A DNA stretch of 38,558 bases from Nitrospirota bacterium (GTDB taxonomy: Bacteria > Nitrospirota > Thermodesulfovibrionia > Thermodesulfovibrionales > JdFR-88), in contig JAKAKS010000011.1 of the NCBI GenBank assembly GCA_021813405.1, positions 1 to 38,558 of the forward strand, written 5' to 3'. A program made the translations under genes and the position numbers. Positions 11,909 to 35,157 of this stretch are shown here, in pieces. The first letter of the stretch is position 1, and the number at the start of each line of letters is the position of its first letter. The notes beneath the pieces were generated by a model. That model did no database searches and had not been told where the DNA came from. It saw only the letters and a list, made by a program, of their open reading frames with translations.

Positions 11909-12876
11909 CAGTACTTTAGCACCTCCTCTATGGCGTCCGTGATCCTGCGCTGGTTAGGGATATAAAAATCTTCCAGTTTGGGAAACGGCAGCACAACGTC
12001 ATACCCGGCCACCCTTGTTACCGGGGCCCTCAGGGACAGTATCGCCTTCTCCGCAATGCATGCGGCCACCTCGGAGGCAAAACCGCAGTTTCTTGGAGCC
12101 TCCTGAATAATGACCGCCCGCCCCGTCTTCTTTACGGAGGCCAGCACCGCATCTTCGTCATAGGGGCTTAAAGTCATAAGGTCTATCACATCAACATCAT
12201 AGGCCCCGGCGGCTTTCAGGGTTTTCTGGAGCATGCTGCCCCATGAAATCAGCGTGGCGTCCCTGCCTTCCTTTAAAAGCCTGGCTTTGCCAAGCGGAAT
12301 GGTAAAGGGTTCTTCCGGGACTTCCTCTTTAATGAGCCGGTAAAGCCTTGTTGGTTCCAGAAACAGGACCGGGTCCGGGTCCCGGATGGCGGCCGCCAGA
12401 AGCCCTTTTGCAGTATAGGGCGATGACGGCACGACTACCTTGAGCCCCGGAATATGGCAAAAGGCGGCCTCGGCGCTTTCGGAGTGCAGTTCAATGGCCT
12501 TGATGCCCCCGCCATAAGGCGTCCTTACAACCATCGGGCACCCGTATCTGCCCCTGCTTCTGGCGCGTATCCGCGAGGCGTTGGATATAAGCTGGTCAAA
12601 GGCCGGATAAAGAAAACCCATGAACTGTATCTCGGCAACAGGCACAAGCCCGAAGGCGGACATGCCTATGGCCATGCCTACAATGCCGGATTCCGCAAGC
12701 GGCATGTCCATGACCCGCTCCGGGCCGAACATGCCGTAAAGGCCCGCGGAAACCCGGAACACCCCTCCGTCCACCCCAACGTCTTCACCCATTATTACTA
12801 CGTTGGAGTCCCTCGCCATCTCCCCCGCAAGGGCCATATTCAGGGCCTCAACCATGTTTACCATTTTACTTGCCAC
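11908..12876 (-). CDS. pdhB: 2-oxoacid (pyruvate) dehydrogenase E1, beta subunit
   Basis: A 322-residue transketolase-type E1 beta subunit. Visible motifs are VEALNMALAGEMARD, VVIMGEDVGVDGGVFRVSAG (with the Glu that activates thiamine diphosphate), FGPERVMDMPLAESGIVGMA and the arginine-rich loop ISNASRIRARSRGRYGCPMV. The C-terminal domain has DVDVIDLMTLSPYDEDAVL. It forms an alpha2beta2 E1 with pdhA and decarboxylates the 2-oxoacid. The GTG at 12876 overlaps the pdhA stop by 11 bp and has GGGG about 9 nt upstream; an ATG at 12864 is an alternative. The length is normal for the family. Confidence 0.92.
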   Translation of the reverse strand: MASKMVNMVEALNMALAGEMARDSNVVIMGEDVGVDGGVFRVSAGLYGMFGPERVMDMPLAESGIVGMAIGMSAFGLVPVAEIQFMGFLYPAFDQLISNASRIRARSRGRYGCPMVVRTPYGGGIKAIELHSESAEAAFCHIPGLKVVVPSSPYTAKGLLAAAIRDPDPVLFLEPTRLYRLIKEEVPEEPFTIPLGKARLLKEGRDATLISWGSMLQKTLKAAGAYDVDVIDLMTLSPYDEDAVLASVKKTGRAVIIQEAPRNCGFASEVAACIAEKAILSLRAPVTRVAGYDVVLPFPKLEDFYIPNQRRITDAIEEVLKY

Positions 12877-13933
12877 CGGAAAAACCCCTCAACTGTGCCA
12901 TCTGCCCCGCCGCAGGCGTTTTAAAGGTGTTCAGGAACATGTCTTCCGGTGAAGGGGGGCCGGCCTCCTCGTATTTTCTGAACCCTTCGTCAACCGCAGC
13001 TGTTGCCTGGCGGGCGGCTTCCTCCGCGTAGCCGGATGGCATCATGCCTTCTTTTTCCATGAATTTGCCCAGGCGCGCCAGCGGGTCCAGTTTCTTCCAG
13101 TGTTCCACCTCCTCGGCGCTTCTGTACCGGGAAGCGTTATCCGCGGTGGTATGGTCTGATAACCTGTATGTGAAGCACTCGATTAATGACGGGCCTTTGC
13201 CGTCACGCGCTTTGTCCAGCGCCCTTTTTACGGCGGTATAGACGGCGAAAACATCGTTTCCATCCACCTGGATGCCTTCGAATCCGTAAGCTATTGCCTT
13301 CTGCGCCAGTGTGGCGGCAGCGCTCTGCCTGGAACGCGGCAAGGATATGGCCCACTGGTTATTCTGGCAGATAAGCACCACGGGCAGGTTGAATGCCCCG
13401 GCCATGTTTGCGCCCTCGTGGAAGTCCCCTTTTGAAGTGGCCCCGTCGCCAAAGTACGCGACGGACGGCAGTTTTTCTTTTTTTATCCGGGCCGCCATCG
13501 CCGCGCCAACTGCGTGCGGCACATGTGAGCCAACCGATATGCAGACCGGAAATATGTTCATCCCGTCTGGCACCCGCATGCCTCTTTCGTCTCCGCTCCA
13601 GTACTGAAATAGCATGTAAAGCGGATATCCAAGCGCTATCAGCGCGCCCGTCTCCCTGTAAGACGGGAACACCCGCGCGTTGTTTCCGGCGGCATAGGCG
13701 CTTGCCACCTGCGACGCCTCCTGCCCCAGGATGGATGCATATGTGCCCATCCTGCCTTCCCTCTGAAGCGCCAGCACCCGCTGGTCAAAAGCCCGGGCAA
13801 GGACAAGGCGATGATAGATATCTTTTATTTCCGGCTCTCCAAGAGACGGCATGAGGGCGCGGTCTGAATTGCCATGGCTGTCCAGTATGTCCAGCCGCTT
13901 TACCTCGAATGTGCCTGCGGTGTACTCGGGCAT
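12866..13933 (-). CDS. pdhA: 2-oxoacid (pyruvate) dehydrogenase E1, alpha subunit
   Basis: A 355-residue E1 alpha subunit. The thiamine-diphosphate motif GDGATSKGDFHEGANMAG, followed closely by ICQNNQWAIS, is clear. It also has RVFPSYRETGALIALGYPLY, SVGSHVPHAVGAAMAARIKK and the phosphorylation-loop-like TYRLSDHTTADNASRYRS. It is the first gene of the operon pdhA-pdhB-pdhC-acdA-acdB, in which each gene overlaps the next. The ATG at 13933 opens a short N-terminal tail typical of the subunit. A promoter-like pair lies about 58-84 bp upstream. The matching E3 is probably the flavoprotein at the left edge of the window. Confidence 0.92.
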   Translation of the reverse strand: MPEYTAGTFEVKRLDILDSHGNSDRALMPSLGEPEIKDIYHRLVLARAFDQRVLALQREGRMGTYASILGQEASQVASAYAAGNNARVFPSYRETGALIALGYPLYMLFQYWSGDERGMRVPDGMNIFPVCISVGSHVPHAVGAAMAARIKKEKLPSVAYFGDGATSKGDFHEGANMAGAFNLPVVLICQNNQWAISLPRSRQSAAATLAQKAIAYGFEGIQVDGNDVFAVYTAVKRALDKARDGKGPSLIECFTYRLSDHTTADNASRYRSAEEVEHWKKLDPLARLGKFMEKEGMMPSGYAEEAARQATAAVDEGFRKYEEAGPPSPEDMFLNTFKTPAAGQMAQLRGFSGGK

Positions 13934-14222: not shown

Positions 14223-14435
14223 ATGAAGAAATTGAAAACCGTTCTGGCAACTGTATTTGTGCTTGGCCTTCTGGCCGGGGCCGCATTCGCCCAGGGCATG
14301 GGCGGCGGTGAAACTGAGAACCAGTCCGGGGATATGACAAACCCTTCCGGCAACATGAATACACCTGGCGGCACGATGAACACGCCGGGCATGGAAAATA
14401 CACCGGGAGCAACCAATCCTGGCAGCGGATATTAG
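14223..14435 (+). CDS. Small exported Gly/Asn/Thr/Pro-rich protein (70 aa)
   Basis: The N-terminus MKKLKTVLATVFVLGLLAGA with AFAQ is a textbook signal peptide ending in Ala-Phe-Ala, so the mature part is about 47 residues. The mature part is low-complexity: GMGGGETENQSGDMTNPSG, then repeated short units built on Asn/Thr-Pro-Gly (NTPG, MNTPG, ENTPG, TNPGSGY). It has no cysteine, unlike its downstream neighbours. AAAGGAG lies about 7 nt before the ATG. It is the first gene of a run of five small exported proteins and may share their promoter. Many Thr/Ser/Asn residues would suit glycosylation, but this is only a guess. I do not recognise the family. Confidence 0.7.
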   Translation: MKKLKTVLATVFVLGLLAGAAFAQGMGGGETENQSGDMTNPSGNMNTPGGTMNTPGMENTPGATNPGSGY

Positions 14436-14508: not shown

Positions 14509-14781
14509 ATGAAAAAGATGCTTGTTCTGCCTGTTTTAACAGTTATTCTTGCGTTTGCCCCGGCGGCCATTGCCCAGACTGAAATGTATAATGCCCCCGC
14601 ATCTGGGCAATTGCCTACGCTTGCCGGGCCGCAAACATCCAATTTTGAGGCCGCCAGCGAAAGCAATGCGCAGAGCGTATGCGACCAGGTGGCCAGCGCC
14701 AATAATAAAACCAGCTGCACGGCCGTAAAAAACGAAGCCAACCCTGAAAACGTGGTGACCTATCACTGCGATTGCAGGTAG
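14509..14781 (+). CDS. Small secreted four-cysteine protein, tandem family member 1 (90 aa)
   Basis: The signal peptide is MKKMLVLPVLTVILAFAPAA ending AIAQ. The mature part has the family pattern NAPA-x-x-QLPTLAGPQ, NFEAASESNAQSVCDQVASA, then NNKTSC and finally NVVTYHCDCR at the C-terminus. The four cysteines follow C-x11-C-x16-C-x-C, suggesting two disulfides or a metal site in an exported mini-protein. AAGGAGG precedes the ATG. A small hairpin (GGCCG/CGGCC, 14783-14797) followed by TTTT lies right after the stop, so transcription may be attenuated between family members. I do not recognise the family or its function. Confidence 0.82.
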   Translation: MKKMLVLPVLTVILAFAPAAIAQTEMYNAPASGQLPTLAGPQTSNFEAASESNAQSVCDQVASANNKTSCTAVKNEANPENVVTYHCDCR

Positions 14782-14837
14782 AGGCCGTCCTTCGGCCGTT
14801 TTAAAAACTGAACCGGGGAAATGGAGGGCCCCTGAAA

Positions 14838-15110
14838 ATGAAGAAGATCCTTGTTCTGGCAGCATTTGTGCTGGCATTTGCATTTGCCCCCATGGCAATG
14901 GCCCAGGACAGCGGCATGATGAATGCGCCCGCAGCCGGACTGCCGACGCTAACAGGGCCGCAGTCCGACAATTTTGAGGCCGCTAGCAATAGTGATGCTC
15001 AGAGCGTATGCGACCAGGTTGCCGGCGCCAACAATAAAACCAGCTGCACGGCCATTAAGAATGAAGCGCCCCCGGAAAACGTGGTGACTTATCACTGTGA
15101 ATGCAAATAG
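14838..15110 (+). CDS. Small secreted four-cysteine protein, tandem family member 2 (90 aa)
   Basis: A close paralogue of the preceding gene. Signal peptide MKKILVLAAFVLAFAFAPMA ending AMAQ; mature part MMNAPAAGLPTLTGPQSDNF, SDAQSVCDQVAGANNKTSC and ENVVTYHCECK. Cysteine spacing (C-x11-C-x16-C-x-C) is identical to member 1, and the central Cys-Asp-Gln-Val-Ala and Tyr-His-Cys-x-Cys motifs are unchanged. The start is fixed by the conserved MKK and the signal peptide. The Shine-Dalgarno sequence (GGAGGG, further upstream than usual) is less ideal than in members 1 and 3. Member 3 starts 12 bp after its stop, so those two are co-transcribed. Confidence 0.82.
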   Translation: MKKILVLAAFVLAFAFAPMAMAQDSGMMNAPAAGLPTLTGPQSDNFEAASNSDAQSVCDQVAGANNKTSCTAIKNEAPPENVVTYHCECK

Positions 15111-15122
15111 GAGGACACTGAG

Positions 15123-15401
15123 ATGAAGAAGACTCTTGGTCTGGCACTGTTAGTATTGATGTTTGCGTTTGTTCCGATGGTAATGGCCCAGGGAAACGAC
15201 GGTGGAATGACGAATGCGCCGTCAGCGCAATTGCCCGAGCTTACAGGGTCGCAGTCCGGCAATTTCGAGGCCTCAAGCATGAGTGATGCGCAGAATATAT
15301 GCGACCAGGTGGCCAGCGCCAATAACAAGGTGCAATGCGTTCCCTACAGGAATGAAGCTGCTCCTACAAACGTGCAGACCTATCACTGCAACTGCAAATA
15401 G
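15123..15401 (+). CDS. Small secreted four-cysteine protein, tandem family member 3 (92 aa)
   Basis: A third paralogue. Signal peptide MKKTLGLALLVLMFAFVPMV ending VMAQ; mature part starts GNDGGMTNAPSAQLPELTGS, then SDAQNICDQVASANNKVQC and NVQTYHCNCK. The spacing C-x11-C-x16-C-x-C is kept, while residues between the second and third Cys have diverged (VPYRNEAAPT). GGAGG lies about 8 nt before the ATG. The stop is followed by a GCCGG/CCGGC hairpin (15403-15421) and GGTTTT, a weak terminator candidate. The pattern of a conserved cysteine frame with variable intervening residues suggests duplication with diversification of a surface or binding role. Confidence 0.82.
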   Translation: MKKTLGLALLVLMFAFVPMVMAQGNDGGMTNAPSAQLPELTGSQSGNFEASSMSDAQNICDQVASANNKVQCVPYRNEAAPTNVQTYHCNCK

Positions 15402-15471
15402 GGCCGGCTGATGAGTCCGGCGGTTTTGAAGGGATGCGGTTTTTACGTCCGCATTCCTTCCCGGGGGAAAA

Positions 15472-15708
15472 TGTGTCAGTGTTTGCCCCGCTTGCGGTTT
15501 TTGCGTTTCCTTATGTGGCAAGTGCCCAGCCTAGGCAATATTTTTAATGCGCCCGCAAGGCAGTGACCGTAGGCCATAAAACGGGAGGATTTCAGGCAGC
15601 CAAAGCGGCGCCAGCCAGGCAGCCACCGCCCATGATCAGAAAAAACTGTGCGGCGCAAAAGACAGGGCCAAAAACGTGCAGCTCTACCATTGCGAGTGCG
15701 AAACATAG
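15472..15708 (+). pseudogene. Decayed member 4 of the small secreted four-cysteine family
   Basis: Pieces of the same gene can be traced in different frames. VSVFAPLAVFAFPYVASAQ is a signal-peptide remnant. TTTAATGCGCCCGCAAGGCAG corresponds to the NAPA-x-Q motif, in a frame with a stop just before it. KNVQLYHCECET followed by TAG (15706-15708) is the C-terminal Tyr-His-Cys-x-Cys end. The CDQVA segment is largely lost and only one more Cys (KKLCGAK) remains. The copy lies exactly in line between members 3 and 5, which supports decay of a tandem duplicate. Confidence 0.7.
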
Positions 15709-15777
15709 GCGTAAGCATATAAAAACTGGAGCTGTAAAATTTTTTTATGGCTCCCCCCTCAACTATCCGGAGGCATG

Positions 15778-16074
15778 ATGAAGAACACGATTTTTTTTAT
15801 CGCGTCTTTTGTGCTGGCAATTGTGCTGGCGCTGGCAATGAATTCACAAGGGCAGACGGGGCCTGAAAAACTGCTGGCACAGAATCAGGCCGGGCTGCCC
15901 CAGTTGACCGGCAAAGAGACGGAACCGTTTACGTCGCCTGACAGGGACGCCGCCCAGAGCGTGTGCGATCAGGTTGCGCTGGCCTACAAACTGGGCGAAT
16001 GCACAGCCAAGCAGGCAGCGCCGCCATTAACCCAGGAAAAAAACGTCAGCCTTTGGTACTGTTCCTGTAAATAG
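15778..16074 (+). CDS. Divergent secreted four-cysteine protein, tandem family member 5 (98 aa)
   Basis: The most divergent intact paralogue. The N-terminus MKNTIFFIASFVLAIVLALA is a signal peptide or signal anchor; the Ala-x-Ala site is less clear than in its relatives (AMNSQGQ). The mature part keeps AGLPQLTGKETEPF, DAAQSVCDQVALAY, then GEC, and a C-terminal NVSLWYCSCK. Cysteine spacing is C-x11-C-x19-C-x-C, with Trp-Tyr-Cys in place of Tyr-His-Cys. GGAGG lies 4 nt before the ATG at 15778 and 1 nt before an adjacent in-frame ATG at 15775; the former is preferred. It ends 16 bp before the convergent alcohol dehydrogenase gene. Confidence 0.75.
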   Translation: MKNTIFFIASFVLAIVLALAMNSQGQTGPEKLLAQNQAGLPQLTGKETEPFTSPDRDAAQSVCDQVALAYKLGECTAKQAAPPLTQEKNVSLWYCSCK

Positions 16075-18048: not shown

Positions 18049-18103
18049 TTTATAAGCCCGCGGAATTTCATCTTTCCATTATTTCATGTGGAGGTTTTTC
18101 CCC

Positions 18104-18637
18104 ATGCCCGTAATCTTAACCCGCGCATTAAGGGCGGCGGCGTTGGACCCCTATGTTTACAATGAGCTTTCGCCCAGGGGGCAGGCCATGGGGCAAGCTG
18201 TTGCCATAATCATTCTGTCTGGTGTGGCCGCCGGTATCGGCGATGCCCGGTCCGGCGGCATTGCCGCTTTCCTGATAGGGACTGTGGCGGCCCTGGCCGG
18301 GTGGTTTCTCTGGACGCTTGTGGCCTATTTTGCGGGCACCAGAATGTTTCCCGGGCGAAGGACAACTTCCGGTTATGTCCGGATGCTGACGTTTGCCGGG
18401 TTTGCCAGCACGCCGGGCCTGATCAGGGTCCTGGAGTTGCTGCCTGGTCTGAGAGTCCCTGTTTTTTTAACAGCCGCTGTATGGATGATAGCGGCCACCA
18501 TAATAGGAATAAGACAGTTCCTTAGATACAGCAGCACCTTCAAGGCCGCGGGAATTTGCATAACCGCATGGCTGGTTCAGGTGGGCGCAACCGGCGCGGT
18601 TATTTACGCCCTTCGCGCATATGCCGGGCTTGTGTAG
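18104..18637 (+). CDS. Yip1-like integral membrane protein (177 aa)
   Basis: The protein starts MPVILTRALRAAALDPYVYN, and residues 30-177 are almost entirely membrane segments (about five): AVAIIILSGVAAGIG, AAFLIGTVAALAGWFLWTLV, a GYVRMLTFAGFASTPGL loop, VPVFLTAAVWMIAATIIGIR and a C-terminal helix. The loop phrase with small residues followed by P-G-L, and the overall layout, fit bacterial Yip1-domain proteins, whose function is poorly known. GGAGG about 8 nt upstream fixes the ATG at 18104. It is a stand-alone gene between divergent and unrelated neighbours. Confidence 0.7.
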   Translation: MPVILTRALRAAALDPYVYNELSPRGQAMGQAVAIIILSGVAAGIGDARSGGIAAFLIGTVAALAGWFLWTLVAYFAGTRMFPGRRTTSGYVRMLTFAGFASTPGLIRVLELLPGLRVPVFLTAAVWMIAATIIGIRQFLRYSSTFKAAGICITAWLVQVGATGAVIYALRAYAGLV

Positions 18638-19836: not shown

Positions 19837-20028
19837 CGATATTTGAATTGCGCCCCTTTGAGGTTTTTAATTTTTTTGTGACCTGTGTTACAGCGCTCCT
19901 GTCCGTTTTCCAGCCATTATTTCCATAACCTTTAAAGTGAGTTAGAATAATTAAACGGGCCTTTGGTGGAAACGCCTGGAAGTGCCCGGAGGGTTTTTCA
20001 AGAAACTTTGGATAAGGAGGACGTGCGC

Positions 20029-20550
20029 TTGAAGCTTAAAACGATTTTAATCACGGCTGCAGCTGCGGCTGTGCTGTGCCTGGTTCCGGCGGCTGGCTAC
20101 GCCGGGGTTAATTTGAATATAGGTATAGGGTTGGGTGTTCCCGTGGCGCCCCCTCCGCCTCCGCCGCCCGTGGTGATGCCCGGCCCGCCGGAAATGGCAG
20201 TGATACCCGGCCTCTCCGTTTACTTTGTGCCGGGCGTACAGGCCGATATCTTTTTTTACGGAGGGTCATGGTACAGGCGTGACCGCGGCTACTGGTACAG
20301 GTCCGGTTATTACAACGGCCCATGGAGGTTTGTGCCGCGTGGCCATGTGCCCAGGGTTTTCTACCGCTTGCCAAGAGACTGGCGCAGGGACCGTGGCGAG
20401 AGGTATGAATACGGTGATTTCAGAAGGCACTGGAGAGAATGGGACAGGGAAAGGGAGCACGGAGACTGGCATGACCGTGGCGAACACCGCGGCTGGGACC
20501 ACGACCACGGCCATGGCCGGTGGGGGCACGGCAGGGGCGATGACGATTAG
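20029..20550 (+). CDS. Exported protein with Pro-rich and Arg/His/Asp-rich regions (173 aa)
   Basis: The TTG start at 20029, 8 nt after AAGGAGG, gives a signal peptide (KTILITAAAAAVLCLVPAAG, then YAG). The mature protein has a VNLNIGIGLGVPV segment, a run of seven prolines (VAPPPPPPPVVMPGPP), then an aromatic-rich core (GGSWYRRDRGYWYRSGYYNG, PWRFVPRGHVPRVFYRLP) and an extremely charged tail rich in Arg, Asp, His, Gly and Trp (HGDWHDRGEHRGWDHDHGHG and onward). The core resembles exported YXWRxGxYxGPW-type proteins of unknown function seen in several Gram-negative lineages. The His/Asp-rich tail could bind metal. It ends before two hairpins, the second a strong terminator. Confidence 0.75.
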   Translation: MKLKTILITAAAAAVLCLVPAAGYAGVNLNIGIGLGVPVAPPPPPPPVVMPGPPEMAVIPGLSVYFVPGVQADIFFYGGSWYRRDRGYWYRSGYYNGPWRFVPRGHVPRVFYRLPRDWRRDRGERYEYGDFRRHWREWDREREHGDWHDRGEHRGWDHDHGHGRWGHGRGDDD

Positions 20551-23021: not shown

Positions 23022-24815
23022 ATGCGGATTGAAACGCGGCGCAAGACGGTTTACGCACTGGTACTGGTCCTTTTAGCCGCCCTGGTTTATATAAACTCCC
23101 TCGGGAACGGGTTTGTATATGACGACCCCAACCAGCTTGTTAAAAATCCCTGGATAAGAGATTTCAGAAACATCCCTGCCGTCCTTACCCATGAGGTGTG
23201 GGGCTTCCAGCCCGCCGTAAAGTCCAGCTTTTACAGGCCTACGATGCACCTTCTTAATATGCTTATATATCCTTTTTCCGGACTGAACCCGCTGGGCTAT
23301 CATATTGCCAACCTGCTGCTGCACTCGGCAAACAGCCTGCTTGTTTTCCTGCTGGCCATGGCTCTGTTCGAAGATATTGTTGCCGCGCTTGCAGCCGGGG
23401 TGCTGTTTGCCGTGCATCCTGTGCATACGGAGGCGGTGGACTGGATTGGCGGCTCCCCGGACCTGATGCTTGTCTTTTTTTCTCTTGTGGCCATGCTGCT
23501 GTTTGCGGCAAGGAAAAACCCTGTGCTGCAGGGCGTTTTTTTTCTTCTGGCCATGCTGAGCAAGGAACCCGCCGTTACACTGGTTTTTATACTGCCTGTT
23601 TTTGCATGCGCGCTTGATGCAGGTGATGCCGGGCCGGTTTTAAAAGCACGAAACGCACCGCCGTGGTATTTCCGGTTTCTGCCGGTTGTTGCCGCCGCCC
23701 TGGTTTATTTTGCAATGCGGATATACGCGCTGGGCGGTTTGACCACCGGCAACAATCATCCGGAGATGGGCCTTCTTTTTGAGGCGGCAAACGCGCCGTA
23801 TCTTTTTGCCAGATATATGGCCAAGCTTGTTTTGCCGCTGAACCTGAACCTTGCCTACAATTTCCATCCGGTGCGCTCTATGCTTTCCCCGCGCGCCATT
23901 GCGGGGTTTTTGGCCGCCTTTGCGTTTGCCGGGCTTCTTGCGATTTCATTCAGGAAAAACAGGAAGGTGTTTTTTGCGTTATGTCTGTTAGCGGTGCCGG
24001 TTCTGCCGGCGCTTTATTTTGCGCCGCTTGGGGACCTGGTGTTCGGGGAAAGATACCTGTATCTGCCCTCGGTGGGCTTTGCATTGGCGGCAGGATGGGC
24101 GTTTGAATATTTCCATAAAAAGGCAAAACACGTTTCCGTTGCCGCAGGGATTATGGTTGCGGCGATTTTTGCGTTTGGCACCATGCACAGGGCGCCTGTG
24201 TGGAAGAGCAATTTCTCTCTGTGGAGCGATGCAGTGAAAAAGTCCCCCACGGGGTACGTGCCGCTGGTGAACCTGGGGGTGGAGTACGGGAATATGGGAG
24301 ATTCGGGCCAGGCCATAGCGCTGTTTGAAAAGGCAGCATCCATCAACCCGGCCCGCTATGAGGCTTACCTGCTGGAAGGGCAGACTTACCAGATGATTAA
24401 AAAATATACCCTTGCCGGGAAAGCTTACCAAATGGCATTGAAGGCCGACCCCAGGCATTCGGAAACCTATCTGCGGCTTGCCATGATGTACCGCGCGGCC
24501 GGGGAGCCTGAGAAGGCCATACAGACATACCTGGCGCTGGTTTCGGTATATCCGGATTCCATGGCGGCATACACGGGCCTGGGGCAACTCTATTTTTCCG
24601 CCCGGGATTATAAAAACGCAGCGGAAGCCCTCGCGAACATTGCCAGGCTGGCCCCAGGCAGCCCCGATGCGCATTATAACCTGGCGCAGGCGCTCCGGCT
24701 GGAAGGGGACATGAAATCCGCTGCGCAGCAGTACCAGGCGGCCATCAGGCTGGATCCCGGTTTCACAAAGGCGTATGCCGGGCTTGGTGAAGCTATGCGC
24801 GGCGGCGGGAAATAA
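23022..24815 (+). CDS. TMTC-like membrane glycosyltransferase with C-terminal TPRs, copy 1 (597 aa)
   Basis: Residues 1-400 form a multispan membrane region of about ten helices. The first outside loop has GNGFVYDDPNQLV with Asp34-Asp35, the acidic pair expected in GT-C glycosyltransferases. Next come SSFYRPTMHLLNMLIYPFSG, HPVHTEAVDWIGGSPDLM, MLSKEPAVTLVF and FGERYLYLPSVGFALAAG, and then the APVWKSNFSLWSDAV entry into the soluble part. Residues from about 405 to the end are five TPR units. This architecture matches eukaryotic TMTC proteins (O-mannosyltransferases) and bacterial relatives of unproven function. The likely role is transfer of a lipid-linked sugar to exported acceptors, with the TPRs binding a partner. 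It is the first of seven consecutive large membrane-protein genes. Confidence 0.8.
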   Translation: MRIETRRKTVYALVLVLLAALVYINSLGNGFVYDDPNQLVKNPWIRDFRNIPAVLTHEVWGFQPAVKSSFYRPTMHLLNMLIYPFSGLNPLGYHIANLLLHSANSLLVFLLAMALFEDIVAALAAGVLFAVHPVHTEAVDWIGGSPDLMLVFFSLVAMLLFAARKNPVLQGVFFLLAMLSKEPAVTLVFILPVFACALDAGDAGPVLKARNAPPWYFRFLPVVAAALVYFAMRIYALGGLTTGNNHPEMGLLFEAANAPYLFARYMAKLVLPLNLNLAYNFHPVRSMLSPRAIAGFLAAFAFAGLLAISFRKNRKVFFALCLLAVPVLPALYFAPLGDLVFGERYLYLPSVGFALAAGWAFEYFHKKAKHVSVAAGIMVAAIFAFGTMHRAPVWKSNFSLWSDAVKKSPTGYVPLVNLGVEYGNMGDSGQAIALFEKAASINPARYEAYLLEGQTYQMIKKYTLAGKAYQMALKADPRHSETYLRLAMMYRAAGEPEKAIQTYLALVSVYPDSMAAYTGLGQLYFSARDYKNAAEALANIARLAPGSPDAHYNLAQALRLEGDMKSAAQQYQAAIRLDPGFTKAYAGLGEAMRGGGK

Positions 24816-24827
24816 AGGCAAGTGAGT

Positions 24828-24833
24828 TATAAT
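24828..24833 (+). promoter_or_regulatory. TATAAT box 5 nt before the second TMTC-like gene
   Basis: A perfect TATAAT, then TTTTT, then the ATG at 24839. The spacing is the same 5 nt as at 23011-23016. No Shine-Dalgarno sequence. It lies in the 23-bp gap after copy 1. Confidence 0.5.
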
Positions 24834-24838
24834 TTTTT

Positions 24839-26602
24839 ATGCTGACCGGCAAAAGATCACGGGAAGCCATATACGCCCTGCTTGTGGGCCTTCTGGCAGC
24901 CTCTGTTTATCTGAACTCGCTTGGCAACGGGTTTGTTTATGACGACTTTGCCCAGATTGTGCAGAACCAGTGGCTTGGGGATTTCAGGAACATTCCCGCT
25001 TTTTTCAGGACCGAGGTGTGGGGTTTCCATCCCGGCCTGATGTCCAATTATTACAGACCTGTTATGCACCTGCTTAATATGGTAGCGTACCATCTGTTTG
25101 GCCCCGGCCCGATGGGCTTTCATATGGCAAACCTGCTTTTGCATTCGGCCAATTCCGCGCTTGTTTTCCTGCTGGCACTTTTCATCTTCGGGGAGGCGGG
25201 CCTTAACCCACGGTTTTCGGGGGACCCGGTGACAGCCGCGCTTGCCGCCGGGATTATCTTTGCCGTCCATCCGGCCCATACGGAGGCGGTGGACTGGATT
25301 GGCGGCTCACCGGACCTGCTGATGGCTTTTTTCTCGCTCTGCGCGCTTGTTTTCCTTGTAAAAAGAAAATCGCCCTGGCTTCAGGGGTTATTTTTCCTGC
25401 TTGCAATGCTGAGCAAGGAACCGGCGGTGATGCTCCTGATTGCGGTGCCCTTATTCGATATCATTTCAGGCAGGGGGCAGCATTCCGCAAAGGCCGCCCC
25501 GCTTTGGAAAAGATATGCGCCGCTGGCTGTTGCCATTATCATCTATTTTGGCCTGCGGATTAATGCGCTTGGGGGCCTTGTGGCCTTTAAGGAGCCAAAC
25601 CCGCCGGTAGGGGGCCTGCTTCCGGCTGCGCTTTCAGCGCCGTTTCTTTTTGCAAGGTACATGGCAAAGATGCTGCTGCCGGCAGGGCTGAACGTGGCCT
25701 ATGATTTCCATCCGGTGCTCTCTTTTTCCGACCCAAGGGCGATTGAAGGGTGTGCCGCTATCCTGATATTTGCCGCAATTCTGGTCTTTTCGGCTTATAA
25801 GGACAAACGGATATTCTTCGGGCTTTGCCTTCTTGTTTTGCCCCTGCTGCCAGTATTTTATTTCCCGGCGCTGGGCAGGGTTGCCTTCGGTGAGCGGTAT
25901 CTCTATTTCCCGCTTGCCGGGTTTTCGCTGGCGGCTGGCGGGCTGTTTGCCGCCGCTGCCTCAAACAGCAAGGCAAAAAATACCGTGCTGACAGCCGGCG
26001 TTCTGGTTGCAGCGCTCCTTTCAATTGCCACTGTTTACAGGAACCCGGTATGGAAGAGCGACCTTACTCTCTGGGGTGATGCGGCAATGAAATCCCCTGG
26101 CGGTTACGTGCCGCTTGTAAACCTGGGGGTGGCAGAGTATAAGGCGGGCAATATACAGAAGGCGATAACGCTTTACCAGAAAGCGGCCATGCTGGACCCT
26201 TCGGACTATGAGGCCTTCTTTTACCTTGGCAAGGCGTATCTTGCCGCAAAAGAAAACGTGTTTGCCGAGGGATCATTCCTTCAGGCAACCAGGGCCAACC
26301 CCCGGTTTGCAGAAAGCTATTATTATCTGGGGGTCACATTCTGGGAAGAAGGGGAGCCGGGGCTAGCCAAGGAGGCCTATAAGGCGGCAATAGCAAGGGA
26401 CCCGCTTTATCATGAGGCGTACAACAACCTGGGGGGCATATATTTTGCCGAAGGGAGTTACTTAAAAGCGGCCGGGGCGTACAGGATGGCGCTTCAGCCC
26501 GGCCCGGAAGAGGCCGCCGTACGGTTCAACCTGGCCCTTGCGCTTAAGAAGGCCCGGGAGAAAAAAAAGGCCGGGACATTCCCTGATGCGGATAAAAACT
26601 AA
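24839..26602 (+). CDS. TMTC-like membrane glycosyltransferase with C-terminal TPRs, copy 2 (587 aa)
   Basis: A clear tandem paralogue of copy 1. It keeps GNGFVYDDFAQIV with Asp35-Asp36, the NYYRPVMHLLNMVAYHLFG loop, HPAHTEAVDWIGGSPDLL, MLSKEPAVMLLI, FGERYLYFPLAGFSLAAG and NPVWKSDLTLWGDAAMKSPG. About ten membrane helices are followed by four or five TPRs (EAYNNLGGIYFAEGSYLKAA is one unit) and a short Lys-rich tail. The DNA of the HTEAVDWIGGS segment is identical to copy 1 over about 32 bases, pointing to recent duplication or gene conversion. The start at 24839 follows a TATAAT box by 5 nt. The gene end overlaps copy 3 by 17 bp. Confidence 0.8.
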   Translation: MLTGKRSREAIYALLVGLLAASVYLNSLGNGFVYDDFAQIVQNQWLGDFRNIPAFFRTEVWGFHPGLMSNYYRPVMHLLNMVAYHLFGPGPMGFHMANLLLHSANSALVFLLALFIFGEAGLNPRFSGDPVTAALAAGIIFAVHPAHTEAVDWIGGSPDLLMAFFSLCALVFLVKRKSPWLQGLFFLLAMLSKEPAVMLLIAVPLFDIISGRGQHSAKAAPLWKRYAPLAVAIIIYFGLRINALGGLVAFKEPNPPVGGLLPAALSAPFLFARYMAKMLLPAGLNVAYDFHPVLSFSDPRAIEGCAAILIFAAILVFSAYKDKRIFFGLCLLVLPLLPVFYFPALGRVAFGERYLYFPLAGFSLAAGGLFAAAASNSKAKNTVLTAGVLVAALLSIATVYRNPVWKSDLTLWGDAAMKSPGGYVPLVNLGVAEYKAGNIQKAITLYQKAAMLDPSDYEAFFYLGKAYLAAKENVFAEGSFLQATRANPRFAESYYYLGVTFWEEGEPGLAKEAYKAAIARDPLYHEAYNNLGGIYFAEGSYLKAAGAYRMALQPGPEEAAVRFNLALALKKAREKKKAGTFPDADKN

Positions 26603-28391
26603 GGGCGGCGCCACCGGCGCATTCAATCCGGTTTACGCCTTGGCTATATTTATTTTTGCTTTTATTCTTTATTCCAATTCCATCAACAACTGCTTTGTCC
26701 GTGACGACTCCGCTCAGATTTTAAATAACCCCTGGATAAAGAGTTTTTCCCATGCCGGGCGGGTTTTTCTGTCCAACGTGTGGGCCTTTACCGGAAGGCC
26801 ATCCAATTATTACCGTCCTCTCATGTATTTTGGCTATATGATCGTATACAGCCTCTTCGGGCTGGATGCGCGTGGGTACCATCTGCTGAGCGTGCTCCTG
26901 CATTCCATAAATTCCGTTCTGGTTTATGCCGCCGCCTGCCTGGTGATTAGAAGATATAACGACGGCGGGCCAGTTCCCTCATCCGGGCCTATGGGAACTG
27001 GTTTCCCGGGGGCTGGCCCCATTGCGGCAGGGCTTGTGTTTGCCGCGCAGCCGGTGCATGTGGAGGCCGTTGCCTGGGCGGGGGGCTACCCGGACCTGCT
27101 GGCCGCCATGTTTTCGCTTGCGGCCTTCCTGGTGTTTGCCGCCTATTCCGGCAGAGGATATCTGAAATATTTTGCGCTGGAAATGGTCCTTCTGCTTGGG
27201 GCATTTTTCAGCAAGGAGCCCGCGGTTACAATCCCGTTTGTTTTCGTGGCTTACGACCTGCTTTTAAGCGGCAGGGGAAGGGGATTTGTTGCAAGGTACG
27301 CGCCTCTTTTTTGCGCCCTTGCCATTTATATGGGTATGCGCACTTACGCCATATTCTACGGGCCCGCAGGGTGGCTTACGGCCAATTTCCGGGCAGAGGT
27401 GGCCGGGCACCTTGGTATAGCTGGAATTAATTATCATCCGGAGATTGGGCCGGTAACAGCTTTTCTGACCGGCGTCAGTTTTTTTGCCGGGTATCTTTAT
27501 AAGATGCTTGTGCCCATCCGCCTGAATCCGGCCTACGGTTATCAGCCTGTCAGTTCCGTGAATGCGGCGTTCGTGGTCCCCGTATTGGCCGCTGCGCTTT
27601 TTGCCTTTTTGCTTTACGTTTCATTCCGGCGGGACAGGAGGTATTTTTTTGCCGGGCTTTTCTTCTTATTGCCGCTTGCTCCGTCTTTATACATATCGCA
27701 CGGGCTTGGGCAGTTCCTGTTTGCGGAGAGGTATCTTTACCTGCCGTCCATAGGCTTTGCGCTTGCCGCGGGGCTTGTTCTGGACGGGGTTTGTAACGGC
27801 GGAAGCGGCGTCCTGAAAAAGGTTGTTCCAGGATTGTTTGCTGTATTGCTGGTCTTTTACACGGCATCGAGTTTTGAGAGAAATCACGTATGGAAGGACG
27901 ATTTTTCGGTATGGTCCGACGCGGCGCTTAAAACCCCGGATAACGGTTTTGTGCAATACAACTACGGAGTGGAATTGGAGCACAAGGGGTTGCTGGACGG
28001 GGCCATAGCAGCGTTCCGCAAGGCCGTTGCGCTTCAGCCGGATTACATGAAGGCTTATTCCGAGCTGGGCGGCACTTTGATGAAAAAAGGCGAAAACGAG
28101 GCCGCGGTGCAGGTATTCCAGACTGCGCTCTCCATAAACGATGCATCTCCCGATACGCCCGGCATCCATTACCGGCTTGCCAGGGCATACCTGGCGCTTG
28201 GGAACCCGGATGCCGCTATAGGGGAATACAGGGCCGTCCTTGCCGTAATGCCAAACGCCGGTATAGCCAGGGAACTTGCAGGCCTTCTTTACCGCACAGG
28301 AAGCCCCTCCGCGGCTGAAGATATGTTTAAGAAGGCCCAGATGATGGACCCCGCACATGCCGGCCCCACTGGCTGCGGGGATTTCAAGTAG
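26586..28391 (+). CDS. TMTC-like membrane glycosyltransferase with C-terminal TPRs, copy 3 (601 aa)
   Basis: The ATG at 26586 gives MRIKTKGG, similar to the MRIETRRK start of copy 1; an upstream in-frame start lies inside copy 2. Features: Asp40-Asp41 in FVRDDSAQIL, SNYYRPLMYFGYMIVYSLFG, QPVHVEAVAWAGGYPDLLAA (the usual HPxHTE is altered to QPVHVE), FFSKEPAVTIPFVF, FAERYLYLPSIGFALAAG and NHVWKDDFSVWSDAALKTPD. About ten membrane helices precede four TPRs. A Gly/Pro-rich insert (GGPVPSSGPMGTGFPGAGP) lies in a loop and is absent from copies 1 and 2. It overlaps copy 2 by 17 bp and is probably translated from the same message. Confidence 0.8.
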   Translation: MRIKTKGGATGAFNPVYALAIFIFAFILYSNSINNCFVRDDSAQILNNPWIKSFSHAGRVFLSNVWAFTGRPSNYYRPLMYFGYMIVYSLFGLDARGYHLLSVLLHSINSVLVYAAACLVIRRYNDGGPVPSSGPMGTGFPGAGPIAAGLVFAAQPVHVEAVAWAGGYPDLLAAMFSLAAFLVFAAYSGRGYLKYFALEMVLLLGAFFSKEPAVTIPFVFVAYDLLLSGRGRGFVARYAPLFCALAIYMGMRTYAIFYGPAGWLTANFRAEVAGHLGIAGINYHPEIGPVTAFLTGVSFFAGYLYKMLVPIRLNPAYGYQPVSSVNAAFVVPVLAAALFAFLLYVSFRRDRRYFFAGLFFLLPLAPSLYISHGLGQFLFAERYLYLPSIGFALAAGLVLDGVCNGGSGVLKKVVPGLFAVLLVFYTASSFERNHVWKDDFSVWSDAALKTPDNGFVQYNYGVELEHKGLLDGAIAAFRKAVALQPDYMKAYSELGGTLMKKGENEAAVQVFQTALSINDASPDTPGIHYRLARAYLALGNPDAAIGEYRAVLAVMPNAGIARELAGLLYRTGSPSAAEDMFKKAQMMDPAHAGPTGCGDFK

Positions 28392-28541: not shown

Positions 28542-30188
28542 ATGGGGACTTTTAAAAAACTGCTGGTTGCCGCGCTTATTCTGGCCGTTGCCTTTGGGCT
28601 GTGGACAAGCTTTCATTACACCTTTAAGGCTTATGTATTAGAAGGCGATTCAGCCGTTTTTCCGATGCTCTGGCGCGGGTTGCAGGAGCACGGCTTCGCT
28701 TTTTTTAGGACATGGCATTTTACGCAGGACAACTGGCTGCTTTCCCCCGCTCCTTTTGTATTTCTTGTCTACTATATTTTTGGCGTTACCGGATACACAG
28801 TGCTGGGTTTGGGATGGGCGTTCTTCGTGATCAACGCCGTATTGCTTGCCGTTTTAACGAGGTTCCTGGCTGGCAGATGGTCCATGGCCGCGCTTGTAAT
28901 ATTGTGCCTGGGGTTGTTTGCAAGCGAGAAGGCGGTGGAAAACGGATTTTTATCCTACATTATTTGCCACAACACGTCGATGGCGTGGGCTTTCGTTGCT
29001 GTAATGGCTGCGGCTTACGGAATGGAAAAACGCAGCGGTCTGTCCGCGTTCGCGCTGGCCTGCATAATTTTTATCGCAGGCGTTTCGGACCCATGGTTTC
29101 ACGCGGCCTGCACATTGCCGCTTTTGTTTGTACTGTGCTTAATATATCTGAGGGGCAAGGAACACCGCAGACAGTCACTAATCATGTTGCTGGGGGTGGC
29201 GGGCGGATGGGCGCTTGCTTATACAAGAGGCCTGGGGCTGCTGTCTTTCCTTCCAAGGGGCGGTTTTCAATTCATATCCACATGGGAACAACTGCGGTCC
29301 AATGCCCACCAGCTTTTACAGGCAACCGGCACGTTCTTCTCATTGTCCGAAGTGTTTGAATGGAACCACATGGCGGGAGCTGTTTTCATTGCAATCAGTA
29401 TCTGCATCGCCTTTGAAACTTTCCGCTGGGCTGTGCGGAATATGAAAAGACTGCCTGTGCGCCAGGCTGTGGCTGCCGGGTTTTTCCCGGCGTCGGTTGT
29501 CATGATGTCCGCAGCTTATCTGGCTTATGATTTGCATGAAAATAATTTCATATACAGATATTTGATAAATATTTACTACGGCCTGATTGCCTTTGCGGCT
29601 TTTGCGATGGCATGGCGCTGGAAGCAGCTGCCGGACCTTTTCCGCGCGATGGCGTGCGCCTGGGTGGTTATCTTCCTGGCGGCCGGGGTGGCAAGCGATC
29701 CGGCGGCCTGGGAAAAGGATATCAACGTAAATGATCAGGGGGCGTCGGCGCTGGCGGGTTTTCTGGAACAAAACGGGCTGAATTACGGGTATGCGGATTA
29801 CTGGGCGGTCCCGGCCGATACGATAACCTGGGCCAGCGGCTACCGGGAGATCGTGCGCCCCATAGGCATGAAATTCGACCTCTCAGCGCGCCCGGAACCA
29901 CGCCTGTTCTTTGTCCCATGGCCGTACGAGACTTCCAGTACGTGGTACAAACCTGGGGATTATAAGGACCAGCGCAGGTTTTTTCTGGTGCTGAATGCCG
30001 CCTGGCCGGGCCATGCATTAAACAAGGTAAGCACCGTCCCCCGTTTTGATTTCTATACCATGGTATCGGCTGCGGAAAGGCAGTTTGGCACCCCGGAGAA
30101 AACCCTTCAGTTTGCGAACTGCGTGGTCCTGGTGTGGGACCATCCCGTCTTGCAGGCCCTGACCGGGGCGGAAACGCCCGGGCAATAA
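28542..30188 (+). CDS. Polytopic membrane protein, putative GT-C glycosyltransferase, pair member 1 (548 aa)
   Basis: A hydrophobic protein with about eleven membrane helices and a soluble C-terminal part from about residue 400. After the first helix comes YVLEGDSAVFPMLWRG; the acidic Glu-Gly-Asp sits where GT-C enzymes keep their catalytic Asp. HFTQDNWLLSPAPFVFLVYY, GVSDPWFHAACTLPLLFVLC and LAYTRGLGLLSFLPRGG follow. The C-terminal domain contains FLEQNGLNYGYADYWAVPAD and SGYREIVRPIG, phrases that recur in bacterial GT39-like membrane proteins. No TPRs. It is about 50-60% identical by eye to the next gene. The precise family is unknown to me; a role in transferring lipid-linked sugars is inferred from fold and context. 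Confidence 0.7.
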   Translation: MGTFKKLLVAALILAVAFGLWTSFHYTFKAYVLEGDSAVFPMLWRGLQEHGFAFFRTWHFTQDNWLLSPAPFVFLVYYIFGVTGYTVLGLGWAFFVINAVLLAVLTRFLAGRWSMAALVILCLGLFASEKAVENGFLSYIICHNTSMAWAFVAVMAAAYGMEKRSGLSAFALACIIFIAGVSDPWFHAACTLPLLFVLCLIYLRGKEHRRQSLIMLLGVAGGWALAYTRGLGLLSFLPRGGFQFISTWEQLRSNAHQLLQATGTFFSLSEVFEWNHMAGAVFIAISICIAFETFRWAVRNMKRLPVRQAVAAGFFPASVVMMSAAYLAYDLHENNFIYRYLINIYYGLIAFAAFAMAWRWKQLPDLFRAMACAWVVIFLAAGVASDPAAWEKDINVNDQGASALAGFLEQNGLNYGYADYWAVPADTITWASGYREIVRPIGMKFDLSARPEPRLFFVPWPYETSSTWYKPGDYKDQRRFFLVLNAAWPGHALNKVSTVPRFDFYTMVSAAERQFGTPEKTLQFANCVVLVWDHPVLQALTGAETPGQ

Positions 30189-30196
30189 GCAAAAAG

Positions 30197-31837
30197 ATGA
30201 GAGCTTTAAAACAACTTCTGACAGTAACGCTTCTTCTGGCCGTTTGCGCCGGGCTATGGATAAGTTTCCATTACACCTTCGCGGCTTACTCGCTGGACGG
30301 CGACACGGCAGTTTTCCCGATGCTATGGCATGGCTGGAGGGAGCACGGCTTCGCTTTTTTCAGGACATGGCGTTTCACCCAGGACAATTGGCTGCTTTCT
30401 CCCGCTCCTTTTGTATTTTTTATCTACTATATTTTTGGCGTTACCGGATACACAGTGCTGGGTTTGGGATGGGTGTTCTTCGTGATCAATGCAGTATTGC
30501 TTGCCGTTTTAATCAGGTTTTTGTCCGGCAGATGGTCCGCGGCATCGCTTGTTGCCCTGTGCCTGGGGTTGTTTGCAAGCCAAAGCGCGATAAAGGACGG
30601 ATATCTGGCCTATGTCGTTTGCCATAACTCTTCGATGGCCTGGGCGTTTATTGCGTTCATTTCCGCGGCTTACGCGATAGAGAAGCACAACAAGATAAAT
30701 GCTTTTACATTGGGCGCGATAGTATTTCTGGCCGGCGTTTCGGACCCCTGGTTTAACGCGGCCTGCACATTGCCCATTGTAATGGTTCTGCTGGCGCTCT
30801 GCATAAAAAAACGGCAATACCGCCGGCCGGCGCTGAACCTGCTTCTGGGGACGATGACCGGATGGGCGCTTGCCTATACAAGGGGGCTGGGGCTGTTGTC
30901 TTTTTCCCCAAAAAACAGTTTTCATCTTATATCCTCCTGGGGCCAGTTTATGGCCAATGCCCATACATACCTGGCGGCACTTGGAGTGTTCTTTCCGGTT
31001 TTGCGGACATGGGCGTGGAACCACATGGCGGGGGCGGTCTTTGCCATTATCAGCCTTTTCCTGGCTTTCCATCTGGTCCGCCATCTGGCGGGGCATGCAA
31101 TAACGCTGAGTGCCAGGCAGGCGATGATTACCGGTTTTTTCCTGGTTTCAATTCTTGTCATGTCTGCCGCTTTTTTGATTTTGGCCGTGGACAGAGGCGA
31201 TTACAGGTATCTGGTAAACATTTACTATGGTCTGCTTGCTCTCGGGGTATTTATATTTGCCTGGCAATGGAGGGCCATGCCTGTCTTTTCCCGATGGGCT
31301 GTATGCCTTTGGGTATTTATCTTTATTGCGGCGGGCGCGGCAAGCGGTCCGGCGGCCTGGGAAAACCGGGTGGAAATAAACGATAACGGGGCGCTTGCGC
31401 TGGCGGGGTTTCTGGAACAAAACGACCTCCATTACGGGTACGGGGATTACTGGGCGGCCCCTGCAAACACCATAAGCTGGATAAGCGGGTACAGGGTTGT
31501 TGTGCGCCCCGTAAGCCTGGAATATGACCCGGGGGCAAACCCCGCAATGCCTTTGTTTTTCATGCCCAGGCGGCATGAAATATCCGCTGCGTGGTTTGGG
31601 CCTGGGAACTCCGCTAACCAGCGGCGGTTTTTCCTGATACTTGGCATGAACGGCCGGCCTTTTGAGGTGGTAAGCAAGGAGAACGTGATAGGCCAGTTCA
31701 ATTATTACAGCTTGCTGGCATTAGCTGAAGAACAGTTTGGCAGGCCGGATGAAACCCTTGCGTTTGAAAACCATATTATCCTGGTGTGGGACCATCCCAT
31801 TGTGCAGGCCCTGCCGCAGGCTGCCAGTGCCGGGTGA
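30197..31837 (+). CDS. Polytopic membrane protein, putative GT-C glycosyltransferase, pair member 2 (546 aa)
   Basis: A tandem duplicate of the preceding gene. The ATG at 30197 lines up with its start (MRALKQLLTVTLLLAVCAGL), 8 bp after the upstream stop; a longer frame runs back into that gene. It has YSLDGDTAVFPMLWHGWREH (Asp-Gly-Asp in the first loop), RFTQDNWLLSPAPFVFFIYY, GVSDPWFNAACTLPIVMVLL and LAYTRGLGLLSFSPKNSFH, then the C-terminal FLEQNDLHYGYGDYWAAPAN and VWDHPIVQALP. A 50-bp DNA block (30424-30473) is identical to the first copy, while most of the rest differs. It ends with a TGATG overlap into the next gene. Confidence 0.7.
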   Translation: MRALKQLLTVTLLLAVCAGLWISFHYTFAAYSLDGDTAVFPMLWHGWREHGFAFFRTWRFTQDNWLLSPAPFVFFIYYIFGVTGYTVLGLGWVFFVINAVLLAVLIRFLSGRWSAASLVALCLGLFASQSAIKDGYLAYVVCHNSSMAWAFIAFISAAYAIEKHNKINAFTLGAIVFLAGVSDPWFNAACTLPIVMVLLALCIKKRQYRRPALNLLLGTMTGWALAYTRGLGLLSFSPKNSFHLISSWGQFMANAHTYLAALGVFFPVLRTWAWNHMAGAVFAIISLFLAFHLVRHLAGHAITLSARQAMITGFFLVSILVMSAAFLILAVDRGDYRYLVNIYYGLLALGVFIFAWQWRAMPVFSRWAVCLWVFIFIAAGAASGPAAWENRVEINDNGALALAGFLEQNDLHYGYGDYWAAPANTISWISGYRVVVRPVSLEYDPGANPAMPLFFMPRRHEISAAWFGPGNSANQRRFFLILGMNGRPFEVVSKENVIGQFNYYSLLALAEEQFGRPDETLAFENHIILVWDHPIVQALPQAASAG

Positions 31838-33528: not shown

Positions 33529-35157
33529 ATGGAAAAATGCATGATGCCGCCGCGCGCTGAAGGTAATCTGATTTCAAAAGTAAATGCACTGCCAGTGCTT
33601 TTGATCCTGCTGGTTTCATTTGCGGTTTATGCAAACATTTTTTCAAACGGGTTTGTGGGCGACGATGCCGGGATGGTGGTTGGCAACCCGTCTGTAAGGA
33701 GTTTTGCCGCATTTACAAGGAGTTTCGCCAATATCCCGGCGGTGTTTGAGCGCCCTTCAGCGGGGGCATATTACAGGCCCGTGTCCTACGGATTGGCATT
33801 CATGGTCATTTATTCGATATTCGGGCTTAAGGCCTGGGCCTTTCACCTGGCAAACGTGGCGCTGCACGCGGCAAATGCCGTGCTGGTATATCTGCTGGGC
33901 TTGCTGCTGATTGGCAGAAGAAGATTCGCCCTGGTTGCCGCGCTTTTGTTTGCAGTTCATCCGGTTAATACCGATGCCGTGGACCTGGCGTCAGCTATCT
34001 CGGAACCCATGTATTCGTTTTTCTTCCTGGCCTGCATTGTCCTGTTTGCAGAAGAAAGAATGCCGTGGCTTCAGGGTGCATTATGTCTCCTTTCGGCATT
34101 GTCCAAGGAGCCGGGCGTGATGATACCCGCCGTATTGATCTCATATGGCTTGTGCATTGGCGGGCGCTTTTCATGGCGGAAATACGTGCCATTTCTGCCA
34201 GCGCTGGCGATTTATTTTCTGCTCCGGTGGAACGCGTTTCGAGTGATAACATTTGTAAGCTCCAGCTCCAGTTTGAATTTATGGCAGCTCATTCTTAATT
34301 CATTCCCCCTTTTTGCCAAATATATGGGCAAGCTGGCGTTCCCCGCCGTGTTGAATGCGGCTTATACATTCCATCCTGTTTCATCGCCTTTTGAATTCAA
34401 GGTTGCTGTTTCCCTGCTGGTGACGGCGTGTGTTGCCGGATTGATGGCGCTTTTCTGGAAGAAAAACCGGAGGGCCTTTTTCTGCTGCATTTTGGCGCTT
34501 GCCCCTCTGCTGCCGGCGTTTTATGTGCTGAGGCTTCCTTTCTTTACAGTGTTTGCCGAAAGGTATCTGTACCTGAGCACCGCCGGGTTCGCTTTGCTTG
34601 TATCCATTGGCTTAGAGAGATTGAGTTGCCTAAAAAATGCCATCTGGAAAAAAGCCGCGCCCGTGGTGGCGGCCATGGTTGCCGTACTTGCTGTCACCGC
34701 AGGGGCCGCTATTACTGTAAAGAGAAACCCTGTATGGAAAAGCAACGAGACTTTGTGGGGCGATACGGCCGCGAAGTCCCCCGATAACCCGGTACCTTAC
34801 ACATATCTTGGATTTGTGGCCAATGACAAAGGGCATGCCCGCGAGGCCGTTTATTTCTGCGATAAGGCATTGAGGATAAAACCTACTTACGATTCACTGG
34901 TGTGCCTTGGCATAGCTTACAATATGCTTGGCCGTTCCGGTATCGCAAAGGCGGCCTTTTCAGACGCAGCCAGTTTAAACCCTGGCGCTGCCGAGCCGCA
35001 TTACAGGCTTGCTTTGCTTTATTTGAAAAAAGGCGATCTTGCAGGCTTTCAGCGCCAGTTCGGGCTGGCTAGGAAGCTTAACCCGGGTGCGGCGGGGTTG
35101 TATGCCAGCCTGGCCCAAAAAGAGGCGGCCGGAAGCGCCGCGCGGGTGAAGAAATGA
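33529..35157 (+). CDS. TMTC-like membrane glycosyltransferase with C-terminal TPRs, copy 4, divergent (542 aa)
   Basis: The fourth TMTC-like protein, separated from copies 1-3 by three other membrane proteins. It keeps SNGFVGDDAGMVV (Asp45-Asp46), GAYYRPVSYGLAFMVIYSIF, ALSKEPGVMIPAVL, FAERYLYLSTAGFALLVS and NPVWKSNETLWGDTAAKSPD. The second conserved loop is altered: HPVNTDAVDLASAISEPMYS replaces HPxHTEAVxW and the DLL end. About ten membrane helices are followed by only about three TPRs, so it is shorter than copies 1-3. It starts 9 bp after the upstream gene and no good Shine-Dalgarno sequence is seen. Loss of the loop residues could mean a different sugar or acceptor. Confidence 0.78.
   Translation: MEKCMMPPRAEGNLISKVNALPVLLILLVSFAVYANIFSNGFVGDDAGMVVGNPSVRSFAAFTRSFANIPAVFERPSAGAYYRPVSYGLAFMVIYSIFGLKAWAFHLANVALHAANAVLVYLLGLLLIGRRRFALVAALLFAVHPVNTDAVDLASAISEPMYSFFFLACIVLFAEERMPWLQGALCLLSALSKEPGVMIPAVLISYGLCIGGRFSWRKYVPFLPALAIYFLLRWNAFRVITFVSSSSSLNLWQLILNSFPLFAKYMGKLAFPAVLNAAYTFHPVSSPFEFKVAVSLLVTACVAGLMALFWKKNRRAFFCCILALAPLLPAFYVLRLPFFTVFAERYLYLSTAGFALLVSIGLERLSCLKNAIWKKAAPVVAAMVAVLAVTAGAAITVKRNPVWKSNETLWGDTAAKSPDNPVPYTYLGFVANDKGHAREAVYFCDKALRIKPTYDSLVCLGIAYNMLGRSGIAKAAFSDAASLNPGAAEPHYRLALLYLKKGDLAGFQRQFGLARKLNPGAAGLYASLAQKEAAGSAARVKK

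What the first reader, a model, noticed from the sequence alone, without database searches (positions are those of the whole stretch)
14509..16074. Tandem array of small secreted four-cysteine proteins of unknown family
Three close copies (14509, 14838, 15123), one decayed copy (about 15472-15708) and one divergent copy (15778) lie in a row. Each intact copy has a signal peptide, a conserved NAPA/LPxLTG segment, VCDQVA and a C-terminal C-x-C. The cysteine frame is fixed (C-x11-C-x16/19-C-x-C) while other positions vary. Repeated duplication and decay of exported mini-proteins suggests a diversifying role such as toxin, adhesin, metal-binding or envelope scaffold. I recognise no described family.
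Basis: partly seen in the sequence, partly recalled or inferred. Interest (0 to 1): 0.75.

Follow-up and report, generated by a model that had tools for sequence, protein, structure and literature searches.

The report
Family-restricted exported four-cysteine mini-proteins
One family of uncultured Nitrospirota bacteria carries small exported proteins, often as tandem copies at one conserved chromosomal spot, with four fixed cysteines and a small predicted fold; they match no described family and are most likely envelope proteins kept under purifying selection, not fast-evolving toxins.

Summary
Four intact genes and one decayed copy lie in tandem at 14509-16074, each intact one with a Sec-type signal peptide and a C-x11-C-x16/19-C-x-C frame. 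Searches put the window in a Nitrospirota MAG. The family is present in 11 of 12 genomes of its GTDB family (29 intact proteins) and in none of 49 from other families of the order. It matches nothing in Pfam, NCBIfam, PHROGs or PDB sequences above noise. Two AlphaFold models give the same compact beta-alpha-beta-beta C-terminal domain. Upstream linkers vary, and 8 of 29 carry N(T/A)PG repeats, as does the neighbouring gene 14223-14435. In 8 of the 11 carrier genomes the genes sit divergently beside a 2-oxoacid dehydrogenase E1-alpha gene. The diversifying/toxin reading is not supported: paralogue and pooled orthologue dN/dS are below 1, the window's four copies are acidic, and no partner gene was found. 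Best reading: exported envelope mini-domain, architecturally like DUF1471 or RcsF proteins but failing their membership tests. DsbA, DsbB and VKOR were not detected in this genome, so whether the cysteines form disulfides or hold a metal is open.

The parts
14223..14435 (+). Linker-type exported protein (P0005, 70 aa): signal peptide and N(T/A)PG repeats, no four-Cys domain
   Evidence: (E 9e-33 in G001; in other genera only one weak hit)
14509..14781 (+). Copy 1 (90 aa), signal peptide plus four-Cys domain
14838..15110 (+). Copy 2 (90 aa); structure model m985e8ab85ea7
15123..15401 (+). Copy 3 (92 aa); starts 12 nt after the stop of copy 2; G001 orthologue has Trp at Cys2
15470..15708 (+). 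Decayed copy 4 (frameshifts, internal deletions); broken in G001 too
   Evidence: (E 0.28)
15778..16074 (+). Copy 5 (98 aa), old paralogue, groups with G003_c (support 89/90)
12866..13933 (-). Divergent neighbour: 2-oxoacid dehydrogenase E1 alpha (PF00676), beside the genes in 8 of 11 carrier genomes

Best explanation
A lineage-restricted family of Sec-exported envelope mini-proteins. The precursor is cut by signal peptidase I (no lipobox), leaving a flexible linker of variable length, in some members N(T/A)PG-rich, and a C-terminal domain of about 55 residues. The domain is predicted to be one helix packed on a small sheet (beta-alpha-beta-beta), with one Cys in the helix, one in the second strand and C-x-C in the last strand. 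The four Cys are proposed to brace the fold: hairpin Cys2 to Cys4 and helix Cys1 to Cys3. The domain is proposed to bind an envelope component or act in envelope stress, with tandem copies adjusting dose or division of labour, as paralogous DUF1471 proteins do. Shown: genes, frame, distribution, place, purifying selection. Predicted: fold and export. Inferred: Cys pairing, ligand, function.
For: Signal-peptide-like N-termini and 0 of 29 with a lipobox. Invariant P, F, A, Cys1, A, Cys3 and Cys4, with Cys2 in 28 of 29. 23 residues from the [L]P motif to Cys1 in 27 of 29. Two models from different query members agree: P0002 has its domain at pLDDT about 90; the 6-Cys member L022 has mean pLDDT 87 and pTM 0.73. 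Weak structural rows to DUF1471 domains (Z 4.2, 3.4, 3.1), and DUF1471 proteins are small periplasmic paralogue sets (PMC4092069, passages and section 7). Purifying selection, conserved site, independent duplication in genera g1 and g2.
Against: All fold matches are at background level (best Foldseek E 0.87 and 1.8; VIA Z 5.0 or less). No sequence link to DUF1471 (hhalign probability 0.2%) or RcsF (0.1%). No DsbA, Thioredoxin_4 or DsbB in this genome and VKOR above cut-off in 0 of 12 family genomes, so bracing by disulfides is not secured. Both models rest on the same 29 sequences. No expression data.
Confidence: 0.45

Rival explanations
1. Metal or cofactor site: the four Cys (C-x-C plus two) bind zinc, iron or another soft metal in the periplasm of an anaerobe that makes few disulfides.
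For: No DsbA, Thioredoxin_4 or DsbB in G000 while the same searches found them in 8, 9 and 6 of 14 control genomes; 0 of 12 family genomes with VKOR above cut-off; near-invariant Cys with C-x-C.
Against: One G001 copy has lost Cys2 with the rest intact (that contig is of low coverage, 1.38 in its title). No conserved His beside the Cys, no metal genes adjacent. Other oxidases may exist that these four families miss. That the organism is an anaerobe is assumed from its relatives, not tested.
Confidence: 0.2
2. Defensin-like (CS-alpha-beta) secreted peptide or bacteriocin.
Against: Helix C-x3-C and the canonical six-Cys framework absent in 29 of 29; 22 of 29 mature parts with net charge 0 or below by a crude cut at residue 22, window copies -5 to -1; Sec export in a diderm leads to the periplasm; no immunity gene seen; purifying selection and conserved site.
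Confidence: 0.08
3. Near-neutral lineage-specific orphan genes, duplicating and decaying with little function.
For: Decayed copy in both species; copy 3 at dN/dS about 1 with Cys loss in G001; G005, 100% complete, has none.
Against: Family kept across 5 of 6 genera with fixed Cys spacing; copy 5 dN/dS 0.06 and copy 1 0.28.
Confidence: 0.12

Closest known systems
DUF1471 (BhsA/McbA/YhcN/SrfN/YdgH) periplasmic proteins of Enterobacteriaceae
   Same: Signal peptide, small alpha+beta domain with a helix over a three-stranded antiparallel sheet, several paralogues per genome; weak structural rows Z 4.2, 3.4, 3.1
   Different: No sequence relation; DUF1471 has few cysteines (PMC4092069 section 7); the Nitrospirota domain has four conserved Cys and no clear extra N-terminal strand and helix
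RcsF
   Same: Signal peptide, flexible linker, then a small alpha+beta domain with four Cys; RcsF shares the DUF1471 fold and has two non-consecutive disulfides (PMC4092069 section 7, PMC11709261 passages)
   Different: RcsF is a lipoprotein with another Cys spacing; hhalign probability 0.1%; 0 of 29 with a lipobox
CS-alpha-beta defensin-like peptides, including bacterial cis-defensins (PMC11561630, PMC8819291, passages)
   Same: beta-alpha-beta-beta order and C-x-C in the last strand
   Different: No helix C-x3-C, no canonical framework (0 of 29); mostly neutral or acidic; bacterial cis-defensins of PMC11561630 come from other phyla ('nitrospir' occurs 0 times in its text)

Membership tests
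CS-alpha-beta / cis-defensin | Framework C..C-x3-C..C..C-x-C with C-x3-C in the helix (PMC5234102 passages) | tested here: not met
   0 of 29 for C-x3-C..C-x-C and 0 of 29 for a Zhu-type pattern of my own wording
CS-alpha-beta / cis-defensin | C-x-C in the last strand | tested here: met
CS-alpha-beta / cis-defensin | CS-alpha-beta fold | tested here: inconclusive
   Rows at Z 3.0-5.0, rmsd 2.2-3.1, 39-46 residues, within background
CS-alpha-beta / cis-defensin | Disulfide connectivity 1-4, 2-5, 3-6 | not testable with these tools
   no coordinates or chemistry
DUF1471 | Profile match | tested here: not met
   Not among Pfam families at E 0.1 for 29 members; hhalign against six E. coli proteins (five annotated DUF1471 or, for YjfN, taken as such by recall) 0.2%
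DUF1471 | DUF1471 fold | tested here: inconclusive
   2m2j Z 4.2, 2.6 A, 52 residues; 4evu Z 3.4, 2.7 A, 50; 2ma8 Z 3.1, 4.1 A, 55
DUF1471 | Exported, several paralogues per genome | tested here: met
   1 to 4 intact genes per carrier genome, 29 in 11 genomes; export by sequence inspection only
RcsF | Lipoprotein signal | tested here: not met
   0 of 29 with a lipobox pattern
RcsF | Sequence homology | tested here: not met
   hhalign probability 0.1%
RcsF | Two disulfides in the domain | not testable with these tools
   four conserved Cys only

The most novel reading that the evidence does not exclude
An undescribed exported Cys4 mini-domain that uses its four near-invariant cysteines as a metal or redox site in the envelope of Nitrospirota that lack the known disulfide-forming enzymes, amplified in tandem at one conserved locus next to central carbon metabolism.
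Probability: 0.12. Interest if true: 0.6.

Novelty: new variant of a known kind. Interest (0 to 1): 0.36.

Why it matters
It defines a small exported protein family that no library used here describes, restricted to one uncultured Nitrospirota family. It also poses a clean question: what do four conserved cysteines do in an exported protein of a genome in which DsbA, DsbB and VKOR were not detected?

Tried and rejected
Pfam, NCBIfam and PHROGs gave only sub-threshold matches, mostly to signal peptides or linkers. PDB sequence searches found nothing below E 0.97. Rfam: 0 matches; tRNA: 0. Phylum search with A3: 7 of 295 genomes matched, 5 of the same family; the other two were read and rejected (G203: a Spy/heavy-metal-type exported protein by my reading, matching over profile positions 1-64 only; G109: no coherent open frame). 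Order search with the domain profile A4: 20 of 176 genomes matched at E 0.05 or better; 11 are f1, the other 9 are 19-29 residue fragments in long frames (E 0.003-0.046) and were not followed up. Viral contigs: 49 pattern hits, none a relative. A VKOR match in G000 (E 9e-5, below cut-off) has a stop inside and lies antisense to an exopolysaccharide chain-length-type gene by my reading, so it is judged spurious.

RcsF itself was not among the rows of either model. The promoter and terminator scan was no better than shuffles. Papers: no text names these records (0 papers for JAJYLE, JAJYJS or DBS2-1); searches gave nothing on such proteins in Nitrospirota in their listings. These searches cover only the open-licence library.

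Rows dropped: the decayed copies of G000 and G001 are left out of the 29; the domain start was misplaced for two rows (L024, L027), so domain charges there are not used; one search's first domain cuts were wrong for several rows and were redone.

Full report
The window is one whole contig (38558 bases, contig 6 of a 2.9 Mb genome of 56 contigs). A near-identical locus lies in JAJYLE010000029.1, titled a Nitrospirae bacterium MAG, so the source is an uncultured Nitrospirota.

Observation. Four intact genes (14509, 14838, 15123, 15778) and a decayed one are confirmed on the + strand. Copy 1 starts best at the ATG at 14509, which has an AGGAGG-type site, not at the longer GTG form. The gene before them, 14223-14435, encodes an exported 70-residue protein with three N(T/A)PG units.

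Distribution. A profile of the four copies finds relatives in 11 of 61 genomes: 11 of the 12 of the same GTDB family (the exception is G005) and 0 of 49 from other families of the order. A profile of 29 members gives the same 11 of 12 within the family. In the phylum sample (295 genomes) and the order sample (176 genomes) no convincing member lies outside the family. The 29 intact proteins split into a main group and a four-member group with extra cysteines (support 100/100); copies 1-3 are genus-level in-paralogues (99/99); copy 5 joins a G003 protein (89/90); genus g2 has its own duplicates.

Anatomy. All 29 start like a Sec signal peptide by eye, none with a lipobox by pattern. After a linker of variable length, 8 of 29 with N(T/A)PG repeats, comes a domain with 23 residues between an [L]P motif and Cys1 (27 of 29), C-x11-C, a hairpin gap of 11-21 residues, and C-x-C (28 of 29). 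AlphaFold models of copy 2 (domain pLDDT about 90) and of a 6-Cys member (mean 87, pTM 0.73) both give short strands, a helix, then a two-strand hairpin, with Cys1 in the helix, Cys2 at the start of the hairpin and C-x-C in its last strand. The proposed pairing (Cys2 to Cys4 across the hairpin, Cys1 to Cys3) is inferred from strand positions only; I had no coordinates. Foldseek finds nothing significant.

Context. In 8 of the 11 carrier genomes (G000, G001, G002, G003, G006, G007, G008, G011) the genes lie divergently next to the E1-alpha gene of a 2-oxoacid dehydrogenase; for G007 this rests on two contigs whose ends read the same. In G004 the E1-alpha gene is about 12 kb away; G009 and G010 (84 and 82% complete) show no E1-alpha at E 1e-60; G005 lacks both. 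These genomes are relatives, so the synteny shows an old shared site, not a functional link. Further copies lie elsewhere with no shared neighbour that I could interpret (part of that output was cut).

Selection (Nei-Gojobori). G000 against G001: copy 1 0.28, copy 2 0.84 (4 changes), copy 3 1.0 (14 changes), copy 5 0.06; pooled about 0.33. Paralogues: 0.18, 0.38, 0.26 and 0.42, with two pairs saturated. Numbers are small, but they speak for purifying selection overall and against general diversification; copy 3 may be relaxed.

Redox setting. DsbA, Thioredoxin_4 and DsbB profiles find nothing in this genome (rated 100% complete), though they find 8, 9 and 6 of 14 control genomes; VKOR has a match above cut-off in 0 of 12 family genomes. 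Only VKOR was searched in the whole family; the others in G000 alone. This leaves the state of the four cysteines open and is the most interesting loose end.

Conclusion. A real, undescribed, lineage-restricted family of exported mini-proteins. It works perhaps like DUF1471 or RcsF domains (inference), is a member of neither by sequence, and fails the defensin framework. The defensin, DUF1471 and RcsF comparisons use PMC5234102, PMC11561630, PMC8819291, PMC4092069 and PMC11709261, of which I saw the passages found by term search, the abstract and part 1 of Results of PMC11561630, and section 7 of PMC4092069. That brazzein, PDFL2.1, noxiustoxin and gamma-thionins are CS-alpha-beta proteins, and that 2m2j and 4evu (titled STM1478 and ydgH) and 2ma8 (SrfN) are DUF1471, is recalled knowledge, the latter in line with PMC4092069.

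Noticed in passing
window 18086-18637: Membrane protein (my reading: YIP1-like; no Pfam match) whose relatives lie near the four-Cys genes in 8 of 17 loci compared.
   Followed up: partly
window 23022-28391 and 33529-35157: Four paralogous large membrane proteins, three of them in a row (cl14), with C-terminal repeats that read like TPRs, and two more paralogues at 28542-31837 (cl33): a second tandem-duplication zone in the window.
   Followed up: no
window 19963-20550: Exported protein with a strongly charged His/Arg/Asp-rich tail and no Pfam match.
   Followed up: no
genome G000 (the window's own assembly): No DsbA, DsbB or Thioredoxin_4 and no VKOR above cut-off although the genome is rated 100% complete.
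   Followed up: partly
window 14509-15401 against L045: Synonymous divergence of copies 1-3 between G000 and G001 (0.02-0.09) is lower than in the E1 genes beside them (0.30, 0.31), which may hint at recombination or small numbers.
   Followed up: no
L055 7970-8281: In G009 a 6-Cys member lies just downstream of genes that read like pilMNOPQ on the same strand (by eye).
   Followed up: no
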